Assembly (NCBI GenBank): GCA_947034885.2
Contig: OX344750.2
Coordinates: 15,122,053-15,186,052, forward strand
Reading direction: 5' to 3'
DNA: 64,000 nt
Source of the DNA: Thuidium tamariscinum
Taxonomy: Eukaryota; Streptophyta; Bryopsida; Hypnales; Thuidiaceae
Shown: positions 1-62,580 of the stretch, piece by piece
How the letters are laid out: every line of letters starts with the position of its first letter
Numbering within the stretch: position 1 is the first letter of the stretch
Notes under the pieces: generated by a model
Database searches by the model: none
What the model was told of the DNA's origin: nothing
Seen by the model: the letters and a program-made list of their open reading frames with translations, nothing else
Made by a program: the position numbers and the translations under genes

Positions 1-1150
1 GTCCTTCGCCTCCCCAATTCTCAGGAAGGTTTGGTACATGAATTCACGATGGGTCGAGTAATGGTTATAGACTTCCTGGGCCAGAGTCGTTTTCCCAACC
101 TCACCCATGCCACAAATGCCGAGAATCGCCACACTGTCCCCCATTTCTTCCAGATGTCCAATGGTTTTCTTAAGCAGCACCTCCCCGCCAACATTAGGTC
201 GTGGGACTGGCTGCCTCCTCTTCAAACCGTTTTGGGGTACAATGATTTCCTGCACTCGATGGATGATTTCTTTTTTGAGCTGATTTGTATCCCTGCAAAC
301 ATCAGTACATACATTCAATCCCACCGTTCAATTTTCCAGGCTAGGGTAAACTGATTGATCAAGAGAAGTTGAGCTTAAATTCAACCTTGAACAAGTATGT
401 AGAGCCTCTTGCAATCAATTTACGTTATAGCGCGAGAAAGAATCAGAGTACTGGGGTTTCGCCGACATACCCAGAGAATTTGAGAAGTTCGAATCCTTTC
501 ACATCCGCAGCATCATGAAGAGCTTTCTTCCATCCTGAGAGTCGTGCTTCCGAATATCTGCCTTCTTTCTTCTGAAACGCTTCCCGGAAAGGATTTCCAG
601 CTGCATCGGGCCTTCGAAGATCTTGAGGCTTCACGTCGTAGAAGACAGGTAGAAAGGTCACAGCGCTAGCGCTAGGATTCTTTTTGCTACATTCCAGCAT
701 AGCAACGAGCTCATCGAGGCAGTACTCCGATTCCGCGTACCCGGGAGAAAAGATTGCCAAGTGAACCGGTGTATCTCGAATCGCTGACTTGATCTCCTCA
801 AACGCATCTCTCCCCTCCACCACTGACTTGTCGACGAAAGGAGTGTACTGCTTCTCAGTGAGCGCTTCTTGAAGATGGGTAACAAACTTCAGCTTCGTGT
901 CAGGCCCCCGGTGGTTGATGAAAATGTCGTATTTGATCTGATGCTGATGAAGATATGGAGCTGCAGCAGGCGGGCTGTTCCCAGTCTCCGCATCGGGTGA
1001 ATCCTCAGAGTTTGCAGTTGGGGGAAGGCTGTGGTCGGTAGAATTGAGACTGGGTTGCTTATTGAGTAAGGGTAGATGGCTTCGAGTTCTCCAAAATCCA
1101 CCACACAACCACTCTAAGGATCTCGAAATGAAGTCTGAAATGGTATACAT
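1..1150 (-). CDS. TIR-NB-ARC immune receptor, 5' part (runs off left edge)
   Basis: This is an intracellular TIR-type NLR immune receptor, of which only the first exon and the start of the second are in the window. Exon 1 runs from the ATG at 1150 down to 471 (680 nt) and encodes an N-terminal segment beginning MYTISDFISR, a Pro/Ser-rich linker and a TIR domain with FINHRGPD and the YCLDEL box that carries the Glu needed by plant TIR NADases. The donor at 470 reads GG|GTATGT. The acceptor TTTGCAG leads into exon 2 at 292, giving GDTNQLKKEI and then a P-loop, GMGEVGKTT. The paralogue at 45574 has GMGGVGKTT at the same place. Exon 1 has the same length in both copies despite small compensating codon gains and losses, which suggests selection on the frame. 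The ATG is chosen because it is shared by both copies. Whether the remainder is intact cannot be seen. Confidence 0.88.
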
Positions 1151-45573: not shown

Positions 45574-48500
45574 ATGTATACCATTTCAGATTTCATTTCG
45601 AGATCCTTAGAGTGGTTGTGTGGTGGATTTTGGAGAGCTCGAAGCCCTCCCCCGATTCCCCCCTCACCTACTAAGCAATCCAGTCTCAATTCCACAAACC
45701 ACAGCCCTCCCTCAATTGCAAGCCCTGAGGATTCACCAGATGCGGAGACTGTGAACAGCCCTCCTGCTGCAGCTTCATTTCTTCATCAGCATCAGATCAA
45801 ATACGACATTTTCATAAACCACCGGGGGCCTGACACGAAGCTGAAGTTTGTAACCCATCTTCAAGAAGCGCTCACTGAGAAACAGTACACTCCTTTCGTC
45901 GATAAATCAGTGGAGGGGAGACATGCGTTTGAGGAGATCAAGTCAGCAATTCGAGATACACCGGTTCACTTGGCAATCTTCTCTCCCGGGTACGCGGAGT
46001 CGAAATACTGCCTCGATGAGCTCGTTGCTATGCTGGAATGTAGCCAAAGGAATCCCCGCGCTGTGACCTTTCTACCTATCTTCTACGACGTGAAACCTCA
46101 AGATCTGCGAAGGCCCGATGCAGCTGGAAATCCTTTCCGGGAAGCGTTTCAGAAGAAAAAAGGCAGATGCTCGGATGCACGAATCTCAGGATGGAAGAAA
46201 GCTCTTCATGATGCTGCGGATGTGAAAGGATTCGAACTTCTCAATTTCGCGGGGTATGTCGACGAAACCCAGATATCACATATTGTGCACAATTGAAATT
46301 CTCGTTGTTTTGCAGTACTCCAGAAGATTCTTTCCCGTGCTATAATTTTAATTGATTACAAGAGGCTCTACATACTTGTTCAACTGAAGGCTGAATCAAT
46401 CAGTTTACCCTAGTCTAGAAAATTGAACGGTTGGATTGAATATATGTACTGATAATTGCAGGGATACAAATCAGCTCAAAAAAGAAATCATCCATCGAGT
46501 GCAGGAAATCATTGTACCCCAAAACGGTTTGAAGAGGAGGCAGCCAGTCCCACGACCTAATGTTGGCCGAAAGGCGCTGCTTGAGAAAACCCTTGGACAT
46601 CTGGAAGAAATGGGGGACAGTGTGGCGATTCTCGGCATTTGTGGCATGGGTGGGGTTGGGAAAACGACTCTGGCCCAGGAAGTCTATAACCATTACTCGA
46701 CCAGTCGTGAATTCCTGTACCAAACCTTTCTGGATATTGGGAAGGCGAAGGACATGAGCCACTTGCGAGAACAGGCCCTCCGTGATCTTCTCAACAAGAA
46801 GGAAAAGAACTTGGTGGAAAGGTACGCAGATAGTTTCGAGAGTCTCGCTGGAGTGAAAGTGCTGGTGGTCATTGACGACATCTCCAACGCGGCCCATTTC
46901 AAAGAACTGGTTCCGAACATGAAGAAGTTGGGAGCAGGAAGCCGAATCATATTAACTTCACGTCGAAGGGACACCCTGAGGACAGTGATGATCGAAGCCC
47001 CTCGCTTTGCTTCGTATTTGCATGAAATGAAGCAGTTAAACGACGCGGATTCCTTCGAGCTTTTCTGGTTCCACGCGTTCCAGAACCAAGAGCTCCCGAA
47101 GAAAGTCGAGGACGTCTTCCGCCCTCTGGCACTGAAGGTGATCGGTTTGTGTGGGGGTTTACCGTTGGCGTTAAAACTTATTGGACAACATTTGTTTCAA
47201 AAGCCGGAGAAAGTGTGGACAGACGCCACCAAATCGATGAGGGATAGACCCGATGTCATCGATGTTCTTAGTATCAGTTACCATGGTCTCGATAATCCTT
47301 CGGACAAGCTGATGTTCTTAGATGTCGCTTGTCAAATGGTGGGTTTATTAGAGGAGGATGCAATCGACATCTGGAAATCTTGTGAATCTTGCCGTATCGG
47401 GCACTGTATGACCTCCAAAATGGTCCATGATTCCTTGCAAATCCTAAAAGACAAGTCTCTTGTAGAAGTGGACAAAGACAACAGATTGGCCATGCATGAC
47501 CTCCTCCAAGAGATGGGCAGAAAGATGGATTTTGATGACAAGATAGGCAGAAAGAAAGGAGGACAACATTGCCACTTGTGGGATCCTCTGGAGGCTCACG
47601 ACATCCTGAACGAACTCGAGGTTTGTGCGTTTGAAACATTTTTCATCTGGTTAAAATCAAGAAATTATTGAAAGTTTAGTGACTTGATCGGTAGGAATTG
47701 ACTTCGAATCTGTTCCCATTTCATTTATATCAGGTTCTTGAATAGAACATGTGATCTCTCTCTACTGCGAGTCTCTACAATGATGTGTTTAGATATTTCA
47801 GATTGAATTACAACGGATGTTTACAAACATGTCTCAGAGGCACGTGTTTATAATATTTTTGCTTCGTGATGTCGGCTATGGCAGGGGACCAAGGAAATCA
47901 GGGGTCTGTCGCTGGTTGGGCTTCAAAGCAGCCACAACACGTCGGCATTTCAAACGATGCCTGAGCTTCACTTACTGCAATTGGATGGAGCTCGCATCGA
48001 GGGCAACTTCTCACAACTGTCCAAAAGGATTCGATGGCTGCAGTGGAGATCCTCGTTTCTCACAAACCTGCCTTCTCAATTGCAGCTGCAGGATTTGATA
48101 ATCCTGGATCTCTCCGATAGTAGCACCCTAACTCGACTTTGGTCAGACGGTGACACACAGGTAAACAACAAAACACTGAGCCTGTGTTTGATTCCGATTC
48201 CATCTCTATGAAAATTGAAAGAGGGTAGACGCATTAACAACGCTAATATAGAGCAAAATTATCGACATGACAATACATGGTTCAATTAAATGCAAACTAA
48301 AACACTCAAGTCTCAAGCGGAACGAACTTGTTGAGGGCCAAATAATATTAAATTTGAAGATGCACTGTAACCAGGTTTGAATCTGGATTGATCATTATCA
48401 AAGCTTCAGCAAGTCTACCGAATGTGCTGGAAAATCAGCTTCTGCTTTCCTGGTGCTTCTGTCGCGATTTCGATGTATCTTACCATGAATGTGTCCGACT

Positions 48501-51500
48501 CAGGTTCCCAAACGGCTTCGAGTTTTACACCTGCAGAACTGCACTGCGTTGGAGGAGATTCCGGAGACTATCAAGTTTCTGACAACGCTAAGAACACTGA
48601 ACCTCCAAGGGTGCAAGAGTCTAAAAGCTCTACCCCACTCTCTGGGCGAGCTGCAGACCCTCCAGGATCTCAACTTGAATGAATGTGAGAGTTTGGAGAC
48701 TCTTCCCGACGGCATGGTCAACTTGTCCAAGCTCAAGAGATTCTCCATGAACGCTGGCAGCAAAATCACGCAGTTGCCTTCGAACTTTGGAGAGCTGGGA
48801 ACCAATCTTGTTTTTTTCTCGGCTCAAAACGCTTCGAGTCTCACTTGTCTCCCAGAATCCTTCTCCAGGTTATCTTGTTTGGAGGAGCTCTCGCTCTCGG
48901 ATTGCCAGTCCCTCACCGAGTTCCCCAAATCTGTCAAGGATCTCGTCAAGTTGAGGGTGATCCGTGTGCACGCCACGGGATTGTCGCAATTACCCGAGGA
49001 TTTTGGAGACCTACGAAGCCTCGTTGAGCTTGAGATCACCGAATGCAACTCCTTACAAAGCCTTCCTGAGAGTTTTGGGAAGCTCGCGCTACTGAAGATT
49101 CTCAGCTTGGAGAAATGCAGGAAGTTCAGGAAGCTATCTCGCAACTTCGGACAATTGCAAAGTCTTACCGACTTAAACCTCGAAGCTTGCCCCATTGAGG
49201 ACGGCGATTTGCCTCTTGGATTTGGAGGCTTAAGAAGGTTAAGCACGCTTCTCATGCAGGAGAACAAGATGATCACGTTGCCAGAGAGTTTCAGGGATTT
49301 GACAACCTTGGCTCGCTTGAACATGCGAGGTAGTCCAGATTTGGTGGATGTCGAAGCATTGCCTGCGTTCATGGAAGAACTGGAGTTGGGCCATTGCCCC
49401 AAGTTGATTGCTGTCAACCTCGTGGGGAAGCTAATGAAACTAAGAAAACTCATCCTGTGCAACTGCACAGGTTTGACTAACGTGCAAGGTCTGGAATCCA
49501 CGGAAATTCTGAACCACATCAACGTCAGTGGATGCAGCAGTTTGTCGAGTCTCTACGAGAATCTTCTCTTCAAGCCGACGGTGAAAGAATGCTACTTGAG
49601 TGGAAGTGGTGTAAGCCTGAAGTACAACAACGATTGGTTACAGGTATGGAAATTAATCAAAATTCTCAGAGTTCTTGCAGAATTGAATCTTAAGCTTGTG
49701 GATGATTATACTGTCCATGCATGCTACCGTGCAATGAAACCGTAAACCCTAAAATCAACCGAATAAGCAATTCTACAGGGTTCGCGTTACTATATTGAAA
49801 AACTTTTTGTGGGGCCCATTTGGTATTCAAAAGGGGTTCTAGATTTCCTTGGAATGCAATTTTGGGACATAGTATGAACAAACTGTGAATATTCTAAGTG
49901 CTGCAAAGAGGGGTTTCGAAAATCAAAATTAAACTCTCATGAATAGTGGAAGTGGGTCATTGCAAGAAACATTGGTCCTATTTGTTGTCACAATGAAAAC
50001 GACTTTCTTCTCTTGTAGTATAACTTTTGAGTCCAAAAAGCTTTGACCTTGAAATTTTTATTGGATATAACTAACTTCAAGCTTAAGGGTTCTATATTTT
50101 TTTCAAATTTTGGAAAAAACTTTTTGTATTTAAAAATTCATTTTGTCCACTCGTCACACATTAGGTGAATAAGGATTCACTACTTTCGTAGTAATCAAAA
50201 TGAATGCTTTTGAATTGATATTTTGGTGGTGTGTTCTTCTACCAAATAAACTTATGAATATGGTTTGGAATATAATTTTTAGTTATTTTTGGATGATATA
50301 TATGCTACATAATATAGCTCAATGGCGCACACATTTACAAATTCTAAAAATATTGTGACTCTAATTTTTTTAGATGAAAGTGATGATAAGGAGATTTGAA
50401 AAAATGGCCATAATTAAAAATAAATAAATAAATCACTTTTGATTTTTTATGAATTAATATTGGATCACTGTATTTTTTGAAAAAAACTGCAATCTTCTAC
50501 CGCATAGTACTGCTACGTGGACATAATACTCCCACATCTAACTTTAATCCCATATTTGCCCACTTGTCAAACTTTTTTAATGATACAATATGTAAGATAA
50601 TGTCATTCAATGGCCGCATTGACTCCTGACTCCAGTACACATGTCAAAAGCACAATACATTGGCAGTTTAGTGATAGTACTCGTAGTACTGACAATACTA
50701 TGCGGCAAAAATGCAATCCCCAATAAAACACTACGAAAAGTGAACAGTGTTTCTTGCAACCACCCAAGTACATTCAGACAAGAATGTGTAGGGGTCGATT
50801 TTAGATGTAGTTACATTAACTCTCCCACTTTCTAAAAATTATTTGCCGATAAGTTATCTCATGAAGAATTGATCGAGCGCTTTCAATTTACTGTTCCTTG
50901 AACCTTGCCTGCACATGAAATGGTTTTGTCAGGCCGGAGCACCAAGTTCCCAAGTGGTTAGTTACTACGACCACGCCATCGGGTTCGTTGACAACACGAT
51001 GCCGAGAAAGATTTGTTCCATGCAACATGCGAATGAGCTTTGCATGGAGAAGAGAGTTTCGAGCATGGAGAGGAGTATTGAAGCCGTTGTCATCACAGTA
51101 ATTGCCCATGACCAAGGGTGGTCAGACTACCCTCACGTACACGGCCAATACAACGGCAACTGCAACATCGAAGCAGGCATTGTACGATCCGATGGGGAGG
51201 TGCCCGTGTTTTCCAGTCAGTTACTTGCATTGCGACATGCCGATTATCGAGACCAAGTCTACATTTGCACATTACGGAAATCTCACCCTCTCGTGGAAAG
51301 ACTGCAAGATGGAGACAGGATTTGCGTCTTTGCTCGATCCAGGTACTTAGAATGGAGAATCACAGTTATGCAAGGGAGCATCTGCGTTGCTTACGACAAG
51401 CCGGCCGACTTGGAATTCAGATCCGCTGCTGTCGAGGAATTCTTTGTGAAAGACGGGGTGAGCAATACCCGCAACAAGTTTCGAGCGGAACCGTTTCCAT

Positions 51501-52271
51501 GCGTCCAACAAGCATTTACCTTCCCTTCGCGTGTCCCAGTCATCGAAGAAAGCAGTGATGGTCGACCTTCTCCGCTTTCTCAAATGATCGTTCGATTCGT
51601 TTCCCGACCAATGTCGAATCAACTCAACCCCAGGGAACTAGTAGGCAACACAGTAAGTAACTAGTAATTTGATACAGCTACGAGCTCTGTCTTGGTTAGT
51701 TAATTAATGCTGGTCTTGGTTGATTGATTAATTTTTACGATCTGCACTACCACAAATGACCCCTACATGAAGTATCATGGTCATATTAAATTTTTCCTTA
51801 CTAATCAACAAAACTAAGTTATTACGTACTGTTCAACTTCCAACATATTCTACTGAATCTTTGAAGCAGTGTGAGTTCTACTAACCTCAGTGGGTTCCTG
51901 TTGTGCAGGTGTGCTCCCCTTGCCATCGATTTTGTGATCCTGTTGTGCAGGTGTCCCCTTGCCATCGATTTTGTGATCTGTGCACAATCCTCATCAGTTC
52001 TCAGCGTGGTTGGCATTGCAACACATGTTACGACTTCGACATGTGTCAATCTTGCTTCACGAATTCAGAGAATGGCACAACACTCGAGCTGCTGCCTCCA
52101 CCCCATCAGTCAGACCATCCCATGTCAGTATTTGAACCACCCAACCCACATGAAATTAACAATCCAATTATGATGCCGTATGAGCATGGTGTAGATCAGC
52201 GGCATTGGGGATATGTGGTGTACGATCACCCAATTGTGCGATGGAGTGAAACTTTTGACTTCATTCGCTGA
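45574..52271 (+). CDS. TIR-NB-ARC-LRR receptor with C-terminal DQGWS-type domain and ZZ zinc finger
   Basis: An intracellular immune receptor in which TIR domains make NAD-derived signals once NB-ARC is activated. Six exons join in phase: 45574-46253, 46462-47620, 47885-48160, 48504-49643, 50933-51652 and 51909-52271, giving about 1445 residues. TIR is at about 77-222 (FINHRGPD; YCLDEL with the catalytic-type Glu149). NB-ARC is at about 228-613: P-loop GMGGVGKTT 288-296, kinase-2 VLVVIDDI 360-367, GSRIILTSR 386-394, GGLPLALK 458-465, MHD 571-573. Residues 614-1085 carry roughly 15 LRRs of the LxxLxLxxCxxLxxLP type. Exon 5 adds a non-LRR region with HDQGWSDYPHVHGQY (about 1144-1158) that resembles, from memory, a domain of fungal ankyrin-repeat proteins. 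Exon 6 adds a ZZ zinc finger (CDLC, CNTC, CQSC). No break is seen. Intron 4 holds a foldback element. The gene is divergent from its partial paralogue at 1-1150. Confidence 0.92.
49954..50765. mobile_element. Foldback-family element inside intron 4 of the receptor gene
   Basis: 812 bp, from GGGTCATTGCAAGAAACATT to GTGTTTCTTGCAACCACCC, flanked by AAGT on both sides (49950-49953 and 50766-50769). It lies wholly within the 1289-bp intron 49644-50932 and leaves both splice sites untouched. Confidence 0.82.
51886..51977 (+). other. Duplicated 3' splice site before the ZZ exon
   Basis: A 39-42 bp unit CCTGTTGTGCAG|GTGT..CCCCTTGCC..TTTTGTGAT occurs twice head to tail (51897-51938 and 51939-51977). 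Each unit has a CAG acceptor (exon starts 51909 or 51951), and a further acceptor CTCAG ends at 51890. All three starts are in the same frame, so isoforms differing by 14 or 20 residues just before the zinc finger are possible. Confidence 0.7.
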
Positions 52272-61516: not shown

Positions 61517-62580
61517 TTTGATACCGCTACAAGCTCTGTCTTTGTTAATTAATTAATGTTGGTCTCACAACTTCATTTCTATGAACTGCACTAAGTTAAA
61601 TGATTGACCCCTAAATGAAGTATGATGGACATATTTCCTTACAAATCAACAAAACTAAGTTATTACGTACTATTCAACTTCCAACATATTCTACTGAATC
61701 TTTGGAGCAGCATGAGTTCCCAACCCACATGGAATTAATAGACCAATTTTGGTGGCGTATGAGCGTGTAGATTAGTGGACTTGGGGATATGTGAATTACC
61801 CAATTGTGTGATGGAGTGAAACTTTTGACTTCATTCGCTGAGACGAAATGCTTCCCCAACTAGTGAGTGAGAAAAATATGGTTCCAGTCTGTAGAGAGAA
61901 GAACTTGAAAGTTGTGTGGTACAACCATGGCAAAACTTTATGGGTTACAAATCATTTGTCGTGTGTGAATCATACTATACTGAAGAAAGCTTTGGCTTCT
62001 ACAAGTAGAGCATTTGTAATATAATAGATAACTTCTATTGTGATTGTAATTGTATCATTTGTCTATGTTCAAGTTCATGAATCACTTTTTGATTCCCGTT
62101 GGCCTCGGAACGGGAACAATTTTGAGCTCACGAGTTCCTTATCTTCATTTTTTGGAGAGGGGAATTATGCTGCACTATTTTCTCTAATGCATTTCATTTG
62201 TGTCGGAGAGCTCGAAAACATAACGAGTATTACAAGTATCTTACAAGGTTAATGACTATATTATTATTGCTACCATTATCATCACACATGCAATATGAAA
62301 TGTGCAAAATTCGGAAAACTTGACATCTAAAAACAAGAAAGATGACTGACAATCTTGGCTTGCATACCAATTGGCGCGTGTTGTGGGCATTGTGCTCAAC
62401 AGTGATCCCAAAACTGGCTAAATTTCGCTCATTTTCTACATAATTTTTTCATGCCCTTTGTAGAAATTTTTAAAAATCTTCCAAAAAATGAATATTTGGC
62501 TAAAAACCTTGAATCTGTTCTGAGATCATTGGTGCTCAGATCCATTCCTCTCTCACTTTAATCTCTCCTACTAATGCCAC
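61517..62580 (+). pseudogene. Duplicated 3' end of the receptor gene (degenerate)
   Basis: Matches 51671-52900: the last intron, a piece of the final exon and the 3' flank. The zinc-finger part of the exon is missing: the match jumps from the region of 51872 to that of 52139, so no ZZ domain can be encoded. Shared landmarks are TTATTACGTACT.TTCAACTTC, GAAACTTTTGACTTCATTCG and GGAGAGCTCGAAAACATAAC. There is no upstream receptor sequence, so it is a dead fragment. Confidence 0.85.
62400..62531. mobile_element. hAT-like MITE inside the duplicated segment
   Basis: The ends are CAGTGATCCCAAAAC and the complement of CAATGATCTCAGAAC, with 8-bp flanks GTGCTCAA (62392-62399) and GTGCTCAG (62532-62539). 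The original copy near 52847 reads GTGCTCAGATC with no insert, giving a direct empty site. 132 bp. Confidence 0.78.

What the first reader, a model, noticed from the sequence alone, without database searches (positions are those of the whole stretch)
50933..52271. TIR-NLR with a C-terminal DQGWS-type domain plus ZZ zinc finger
After the LRRs, two further in-phase exons add a region with HDQGWSDYPHVHGQY and then a ZZ-type zinc finger. Plant NLRs sometimes carry integrated decoy domains, but I do not recall this pair. All five splice junctions keep frame over 1445 codons, so the fusion looks genuine. It could be a new integrated-decoy architecture or a bryophyte-specific receptor class.
Basis: partly seen in the sequence, partly recalled or inferred. 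Interest (0 to 1): 0.78.

Follow-up and report, generated by a model that had tools for sequence, protein, structure and literature searches.

The report
Moss immune receptor with ZZ bait
This is a plant (probably moss) immune receptor whose tail carries an unnamed domain and a small zinc finger that resembles part of a cell protein that reads protein ends for degradation, suggesting that the receptor may watch that machinery for attack.

Summary
The window carries a six-exon TIR-NB-ARC-LRR gene of 1445 codons with open frames and GT-AG introns, ending in a region unknown to Pfam (exon 5, HDQGWS) and a ZZ zinc finger (exon 6). Copies elsewhere in the same genome test the fusion: in two paralogs on another contig, exon 5 and the ZZ form one uninterrupted 379-codon frame, so these two parts belong together without any splicing argument. 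The exon-5 domain also ends two other TNLs that have no ZZ after it: it is a post-LRR domain of part of this clade, and the ZZ is a separate addition (or was lost elsewhere). The ZZ is closest to that of BIG/UBR4, which binds N-terminal arginine; eight zinc ligands and two alpha-amine-type aspartates are kept, the arginine-contact serine is not. Other NLRs of this genome end in a different, PRT1-like, zinc-degenerate ZZ. Best reading: an NLR with an integrated ZZ bait of N-degron-reader type. ZZ in Physcomitrella NLR-like genes was already mentioned in print in one line, so this is a new variant of a known kind. Fold of exon 5, transcripts and ligand remain untested.

The parts
45574..46253 (+). 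exon 1: N-terminal tail and TIR domain (residues 76-230 reach just into exon 2); CLDEL at 146-150 with the presumed catalytic Glu
   Evidence: the role of that Glu is recalled
46462..47620 (+). exon 2: NB-ARC and winged helix; P-loop GMGGVGKTT 288, GLPLAL 459, MHD 571
   Evidence: motif names recalled
47885..48160 (+). exon 3: start of the LRR region (residues 614-705)
   Evidence: an LRR match covers 680-742
48504..49643 (+). exon 4: LRRs
49644..50932 (+). intron 4, 1289 nt; 184 nt in copy B, 191 nt in C and D, so about 1.1 kb was probably inserted in this copy
50933..51652 (+). exon 5: unnamed post-LRR domain (conserved core residues 1-157 of the exon) and a variable linker
   Evidence: no Pfam family over a cut-off and no credible PDB match; six-copy alignment
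51107..51151 (+). HDQGWSDYPHVHGQY motif; HDQG invariant in the six aligned copies
51909..52271 (+). exon 6 with the proximal acceptor; alternative in-frame acceptor at 51951
51972..52118 (+). ZZ zinc finger, C1347 to H1395: ligands C1347, C1350, C1362, C1365, C1371, C1374, H1391, H1395; alpha-amine-type aspartates D1348 and D1369
   Evidence: ligand assignment from the ZZ pattern (recalled), aspartates by alignment to PRT1
470..1150 (-). paralog B, exon 1 (divergently oriented near-copy of the gene, continuing upstream of the window)
1..291 (-). paralog B, start of exon 2
61719..61838 (+). relic of the end of exon 6 (65% identical over 43 aa, with stops)

Best explanation
The gene encodes a TIR-NLR whose C-terminus carries (1) a post-LRR domain found in part of this TNL clade and (2) a ZZ zinc finger nearest to the N-degron-reading ZZ of the giant ubiquitin ligase BIG (UBR4). 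Shown: architecture, the exon 5-ZZ fusion, relatedness to BIG's ZZ, zinc ligands and NLR motifs present. Inferred: the ZZ is an integrated bait (decoy or sensor). A pathogen molecule that targets the ZZ of BIG, or that changes the N-terminal peptides it binds, acts on the ZZ of the receptor instead; the exon-5 domain, placed where C-JID sits in flowering-plant TNLs, helps to pass this to the LRR and NB-ARC; nucleotide exchange lets the receptor assemble and the TIR domains signal (mechanism of known TNLs, not tested here).
For: Fusion: C and D hold exon 5 and the ZZ in one open frame; C is open over 1450 codons with A-like junctions; intron 4 keeps its sites and phase in A-D and is only 184-191 nt in B, C and D. 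ZZ type: best PDB matches are the BIG ZZ (1.8e-10), then KCMF1 (2.1e-4); of eight other ZZ peptides of the genome compared, the nearest is that of its own BIG (61.6 bits, next 41.2), a locus identified as BIG at 1.5e-210; they share LPPPH..(D/E)HPM. Pocket: D1348 and D1369 align with D312 and D336 of PRT1, which hold the alpha-amine (PMC11668491, passages; PRT1 sequence). BIG ZZ binds N-terminal Arg in a crystal and by ITC (PMC7618180, passages). Recurrence: other NLRs of this genome end in a different ZZ. Immunity link: prt1 mutants show raised defence (PMC6933115, passages).
Against: No transcript, protein or effector data. The serine of the BIG ZZ that touches Arg1 is Thr in A, Glu in B, Ala in C and D, so arginine reading may be lost. 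Copy D and broken copy G lack the second aspartate. Exon 6 is the least constrained segment: dN/dS 0.52 for A-C (interval to 0.99), 0.69 for A-D, 2.04 for the few C-D changes; this fits a fast-evolving bait but also relaxed constraint. Of the four TIR-to-ZZ copies only A and C are open with the shared junctions: B has a frameshift in exon 5, and D is open only with a donor 4 nt further on, because of a 1-nt difference early in exon 2. The near TNLs L053, L058, L059 show no exon-5 domain in about 6 kb downstream, so its history is not simple. BIG affinity rests on about 55 residues and few ZZ domains. On PRT1 an earlier report, cited in PMC6933115, found the opposite phenotype.
Confidence: 0.5

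Rival explanations
1. The ZZ is not bait but a working part: it controls the receptor's own turnover or docks it onto the N-degron/ubiquitin machinery (a self-regulatory or signalling tail).
For: Zinc ligands and the two aspartates are kept in A, B and C; an N-recognin-type protein, UBR7, regulates immunity by the TNL N (title and abstract start of PMC6642208 only).
Against: No RING or other ligase domain among the Pfam matches shown for the gene (25 of 28 listed). The Arg-contact position varies among copies and exon 6 is the least constrained segment.
Confidence: 0.2
2. The exon-5 plus ZZ tail is neutral or decaying baggage left by a recombination event.
For: Higher dN/dS than TIR, NB-ARC and LRR in A-C; copy B has a frameshift in exon 5, copy D departs from the shared reading frame at exons 1-2, copy G is broken, decayed exon-6 fragments lie elsewhere and in the window at 61719-61838.
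Against: The exon-5 to ZZ stretch itself is open in A (spliced), C and D; dN/dS is below 1 in exon 5 (0 of 2000 resamplings reach 1) and at the edge in exon 6 (2.4% reach 1); zinc ligands are present in A-D.
Confidence: 0.15
3. Exons 5-6 form a separate small gene behind a TNL that ends after exon 4.
For: An ATG lies in frame just upstream of exon 5 in A-D (MKWFCQAG or MVWLCQ), and exon 4 read on reaches a stop at 49745.
Against: Donor, acceptor and phase of intron 4 are kept in A-D; only 184-191 nt separate exons 4 and 5 in B, C and D, little for an intergenic region, and the stretch differs by indels like an intron. The exon-5 domain follows a TNL LRR in the six copies A-F; the searches found it elsewhere only in a broken copy that also follows LRR remains.
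Confidence: 0.07
4. Exon 5 is a plain C-JID (the known TNL post-LRR domain), merely diverged, followed by the ZZ.
For: Same position after the LRRs; a strand-rich pattern in a model too poor to trust.
Against: No C-JID match over the cut-off in the whole genome (one match, 19.8 bits against 24.1, on another contig); the first C-JID motif P-x-[YEW]-F as given in PMC8813719 is absent from the end of exon 4 through exon 6.
Confidence: 0.15

Closest known systems
Plant TIR-NLR (TNL) immune receptors such as RPP1 and ROQ1
   Same: TIR, NB-ARC with P-loop, GLPL and MHD, ROQ1-type winged helix, LRRs, then a post-LRR domain
   Different: The post-LRR domain is not recognised as C-JID, and a ZZ follows it
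NLRs with integrated domains (Pik-1 and RGA5 with HMA, listed; RRS1-WRKY, recalled)
   Same: A host-type domain fused in frame to an NLR
   Different: The fused domain is a BIG-type ZZ; no effector or ligand is known
ZZ-bearing NLR-like genes of Physcomitrella patens (PMC7145615, one sentence)
   Same: ZZ PF00569 in moss NLR-like genes
   Different: The passages seen give no architecture, kind of ZZ or post-LRR domain; those genes could not be compared here
ZZ of BIG/UBR4 (PDB 9lgr, 9lgs, 9qt9; PMC7618180)
   Same: 46-47% identity to the ZZ of the genome's own BIG, zinc ligands, two aspartates, LPPPH..HPM tail
   Different: Arg-contacting serine replaced; sits in a receptor, without the ligase
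ZZ of PRT1 (PDB 8zg8-8zgb)
   Same: Closest PDB match of the other NLR-ZZ genes tested here (C3 and C6), with HERC2 close behind
   Different: Not the type found in the window gene; those NLR copies lack the middle CxxC

Membership tests
TIR-NLR | TIR domain | tested here: met
   Pfam TIR 2.4e-25, residues 76-230
TIR-NLR | NB-ARC with P-loop, GLPL, MHD | tested here: met
   Pfam 2.7e-31; motifs at 288, 459, 571
TIR-NLR | LRR region | tested here: met
   LRR_14 4.9e-28 and others
TIR-NLR | NADase activity and cell death on activation | not testable with these tools
   needs experiments
NLR with integrated domain | non-NLR domain in the same gene | tested here: met
   open splice frames in A; exon 5 and ZZ in one frame in C and D; no RNA
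NLR with integrated domain | domain related to a host protein | tested here: met
   nearest to BIG ZZ in the PDB and among eight other ZZ peptides of the genome
NLR with integrated domain | domain binds an effector or its product | not testable with these tools
   no binding data
ZZ zinc finger PF00569 | score over the curated cut-off | tested here: met
   window gene 22.8 and 26.3 bits against 21.4; copy C 28.9, copy D 21.2, just below
ZZ zinc finger PF00569 | six Cys and two His zinc ligands | tested here: met
   present in A, B, C, D
N-degron-reading ZZ (BIG, p62, PRT1 type) | two alpha-amine-binding aspartates | tested here: met
   D1348, D1369 in A; kept in B and C; the second lost in D and in broken copy G
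N-degron-reading ZZ (BIG type) | serine contacting Arg1 | tested here: not met
   Thr in A, Glu in B, Ala in C and D; that it is the serine after CDGC is inferred, as it is the only serine in the aligned BIG stretch
N-degron-reading ZZ | binding of N-terminal peptides | not testable with these tools
   needs ITC or a crystal
C-JID PF20160 | profile match | tested here: not met
   no match in exon 5; none over the cut-off in the genome
C-JID PF20160 | first motif P-x-[YEW]-F after the LRR | tested here: not met
   absent from residue 1071 to the end; motif from PMC8813719
C-JID PF20160 | jelly-roll/Ig-like fold | tested here: inconclusive
   single-sequence model pLDDT 33; second job interrupted

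The most novel reading that the evidence does not exclude
Moss NLRs have taken up at least two kinds of N-degron-reader ZZ (BIG type and PRT1-like type) and use them to read protein N-termini directly, so that they sense the products of pathogen proteolysis, or attack on the N-degron pathway, as a danger signal.
Probability: 0.12. Interest if true: 0.87.

Novelty: new variant of a known kind. Interest (0 to 1): 0.55.

Why it matters
Integrated domains point to what pathogens attack. A BIG-type ZZ in one TNL clade and a PRT1-like ZZ in other NLRs of the same genome would point to the N-degron machinery as a target, in a plant lineage whose pathogen effectors are little known, and would give a small, expressible domain to fish with. 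The unnamed post-LRR domain could show how TNLs without a recognisable C-JID complete their recognition surface.

Tried and rejected
Bacterial or viral origin of the exon-5 domain: one scan each of genome contigs and viral contigs with an alignment of the domain found no relative. Own-genome searches with exon 5 of A and of F gave seven loci, A-F and broken G (single-sequence searches, so diverged copies may be missed); a weak hit on C8 (E 0.137; 10.5 bits with the profile) was taken as chance. PDB matches of exon 5 (best E 0.59 alone, 0.79 as a profile) and weak Pfam matches of copy F and of single alignment members (HD-CE, best E 0.021, 15 bits against a cut-off of 27; DUF3459, DUF5606, DCP1) were judged chance. 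I recalled that a DQGWS-type region occurs in fungal proteins; no tool here holds fungal proteins, and a paper search for DQGW gave nothing relevant, so this is only a lead. A sensor/executor pair with B was considered: A and B are divergent, but 44 kb apart and near-identical, so not supported.

Not done: of 109 TIR matches the 34 strongest (E <= 3.7e-16) were taken as canonical; 22 of these went into the tree (copies A-F and 16 others; 12 not fetched). Two further rows made, the C6 and C3 NLR-ZZ genes, were left out of the tree (one without a TIR match, one without any match to the queries). The downstream DNA of only 3 of those 16 was read. An alignment A4 was made and not used further. No other bryophyte genome could be searched.
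Full report
What is there. The window is a stretch of contig C2 of a 363-Mb genome in 19 contigs; size and content suggest a moss, perhaps Ceratodon purpureus (recalled, not tested). It encodes TIR, NB-ARC, a ROQ1-type winged helix, LRRs and, at the end, a ZZ zinc finger above the Pfam cut-off. Exon 5 matches no Pfam family over a cut-off and nothing credible in the PDB. A near-perfect tandem repeat at exon 6 provides a second in-frame acceptor 42 nt on, so two products are possible.

Is the fusion real? Copies of exon 5 were found at seven loci. B lies in inverted orientation, 44 kb away, and is 98% identical in exon 4, but has a 1-nt frameshift in exon 5. C and D on contig C4 have the same gene with exons 5 and 6 in one open frame of 379 codons, with no intron between. 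C is open over 1450 codons with junctions like those of A. D is less sound: with the shared exon 1-2 junction it runs into stops, and it is open over 1451 codons only if the exon-1 donor is shifted by 4 nt. Its exon 5-ZZ stretch is open all the same. So exon 5 and the ZZ belong to one gene. Intron 4 is 1289 nt in A but 184 nt in B and 191 nt in C and D, with the same phase: an insertion of about 1.1 kb in A explains the distance that might have raised doubt. An ATG just before exon 5 leaves a small chance of a separate gene. dN/dS between A and C is 0.14 in TIR, 0.29 in NB-ARC, 0.25 in LRR, 0.40 in exon 5 and 0.52 in exon 6, the last with an interval up to 0.99; exon 6 gives 0.69 for A-D and 2.04 for the few changes between C and D.

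What is exon 5? E and F on contig C3 are TNLs whose LRRs are followed by the same domain (34-37% identity over the exon, 39-45% in the core) and then a stop; no ZZ. In a tree of TIR plus NB-ARC (22 of the 34 strongest TIR matches), A-D form one clade (100/100), E and F another (99/96); E and F join L053, L058 and L059 (96/93), and all nine stand together (100/99). In about 6 kb downstream of those three I found LRRs but no exon-5 domain. The domain is thus a post-LRR domain in part of this clade, gained once and lost, or gained twice, and the ZZ marks A-D. The genome holds no C-JID match over the cut-off.

What is the ZZ? By sequence it is nearest to BIG/UBR4: PDB 9lgr/9lgs at 1.8e-10, KCMF1 at 2.1e-4. 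Among eight other ZZ peptides of the genome compared, the nearest is that of its own BIG, identified by a match to 9qt9 at 1.5e-210. The eight zinc ligands are present in A-D. PRT1 uses D312 and D336 to hold the alpha-amine (PMC11668491, passages read); in the PRT1 sequence shown the numbering, which also fits Tyr317 and Ile333, places them in CDSC and YDLC, so they correspond to D1348 and D1369 here. A, B and C keep both; D has Ala and broken copy G has Asn at the second. BIG ZZ binds N-terminal Arg, with a serine on Arg1 (PMC7618180, passages read). In the aligned BIG stretch the only serine follows CDGC; A, B, C and D have Thr, Glu, Ala and Ala there. So the peptide pocket is partly kept and varies where specificity is read.

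Other ZZ-NLRs. Of 13 ZZ matches at E <= 0.01, four are A-D, one is G, two lie in other NLR genes, one (C6:18259979) is a short frame like one of these, and the other five are BIG, an ADA2-type ZZ, two RING-ZZ frames like PRT1, and one unassigned. The other NLRs are an NB-ARC-LRR gene on C6 whose 1138-codon LRR frame ends in a ZZ and a TIR-LRR-ZZ gene on C3 whose P-loop region matches NB-ARC only below the cut-off (19.6 against 23.5 bits). A like gene on C8 has a TIR match and a weak ZZ match (E 0.018); its frames were read by eye only. In the PDB the ZZ of the C3 gene is nearest to PRT1 (8.8e-8, HERC2 9.4e-7) and so is that of the C6 gene (1.9e-7, HERC2 1.4e-6). The four ZZ copies of this type that were read (C3, C8, two on C6) lack the middle CxxC. 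So at least two kinds of ZZ sit in NLRs here; the counts are lower bounds.

How it most likely works. Shown: architecture, fusion, relatedness. Inferred: an integrated bait. I put 0.5 on the bait reading, 0.2 on a self-regulatory tail, 0.15 on baggage; the flaw in copy D, found in a late check, concerns the front of that copy and did not change these odds. Loss of PRT1 raised defence in Arabidopsis in one study, which itself cites an earlier report of the opposite (PMC6933115, passages read); this makes N-recognins plausible effector targets, no more. One narrow search showed no effector against BIG or PRT1.

Novelty. Integrated domains in non-flowering NLRs, zinc fingers included, are known, with an expansion in mosses (PMC11218826, passages read), and ZZ is named for P. 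patens (PMC7145615, passages read). I found no description of a BIG-type ZZ or of this post-LRR domain in an NLR in the searches (open-licence papers only; I saw listings, and passages of eight papers: and, by abstract start, PMC6642208; supplementary tables could not be opened). Verdict: a genuine fusion, a new variant of a known kind.

Noticed in passing
L038:200-4866 (G000:C6:17901099-17905765): NB-ARC-LRR gene with a very long regular LRR array whose reading frame ends in a ZZ lacking the middle CxxC; closest PDB match PRT1.
   Followed up: partly
L039:364-4559 (C3) and L064:71-4528, minus strand (C8): Two genes with TIR, a P-loop region, LRRs and a PRT1-like ZZ at the end, followed by a second partial ZZ-like stretch (by eye); a further NLR-ZZ family. 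The C8 copy was read by eye only.
   Followed up: partly
window 49644-50932: About 1.1 kb of AT-rich DNA with inverted repeats, present in intron 4 of this copy and not in B, C or D; looks like a mobile element.
   Followed up: partly
window 51895-51978: Near-perfect tandem repeat over the exon-6 acceptor, not seen in B, C, D; gives two in-frame acceptors and an extra CxxC-like peptide before the ZZ.
   Followed up: partly
L009:9441 (G000:C2:15118440): Paralog B has a 1-nt frameshift in exon 5, after the conserved core; would end before the ZZ.
   Followed up: partly
L013, start of exon 2 of copy D (contig C4): Copy D departs by 1 nt from the shared frame early in exon 2; open only with a shifted exon-1 donor, so it may be damaged.
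   Followed up: partly
window 61719-61838; L036:2290-2541; L037:2112-2352: Decayed exon-6 fragments; no NLR part was seen next to them in what was read.
   Followed up: partly
L019:5319-6662, minus strand (C2:35.9 Mb): Broken copy G of exons 5 and 6 next to LRR remains.
   Followed up: partly
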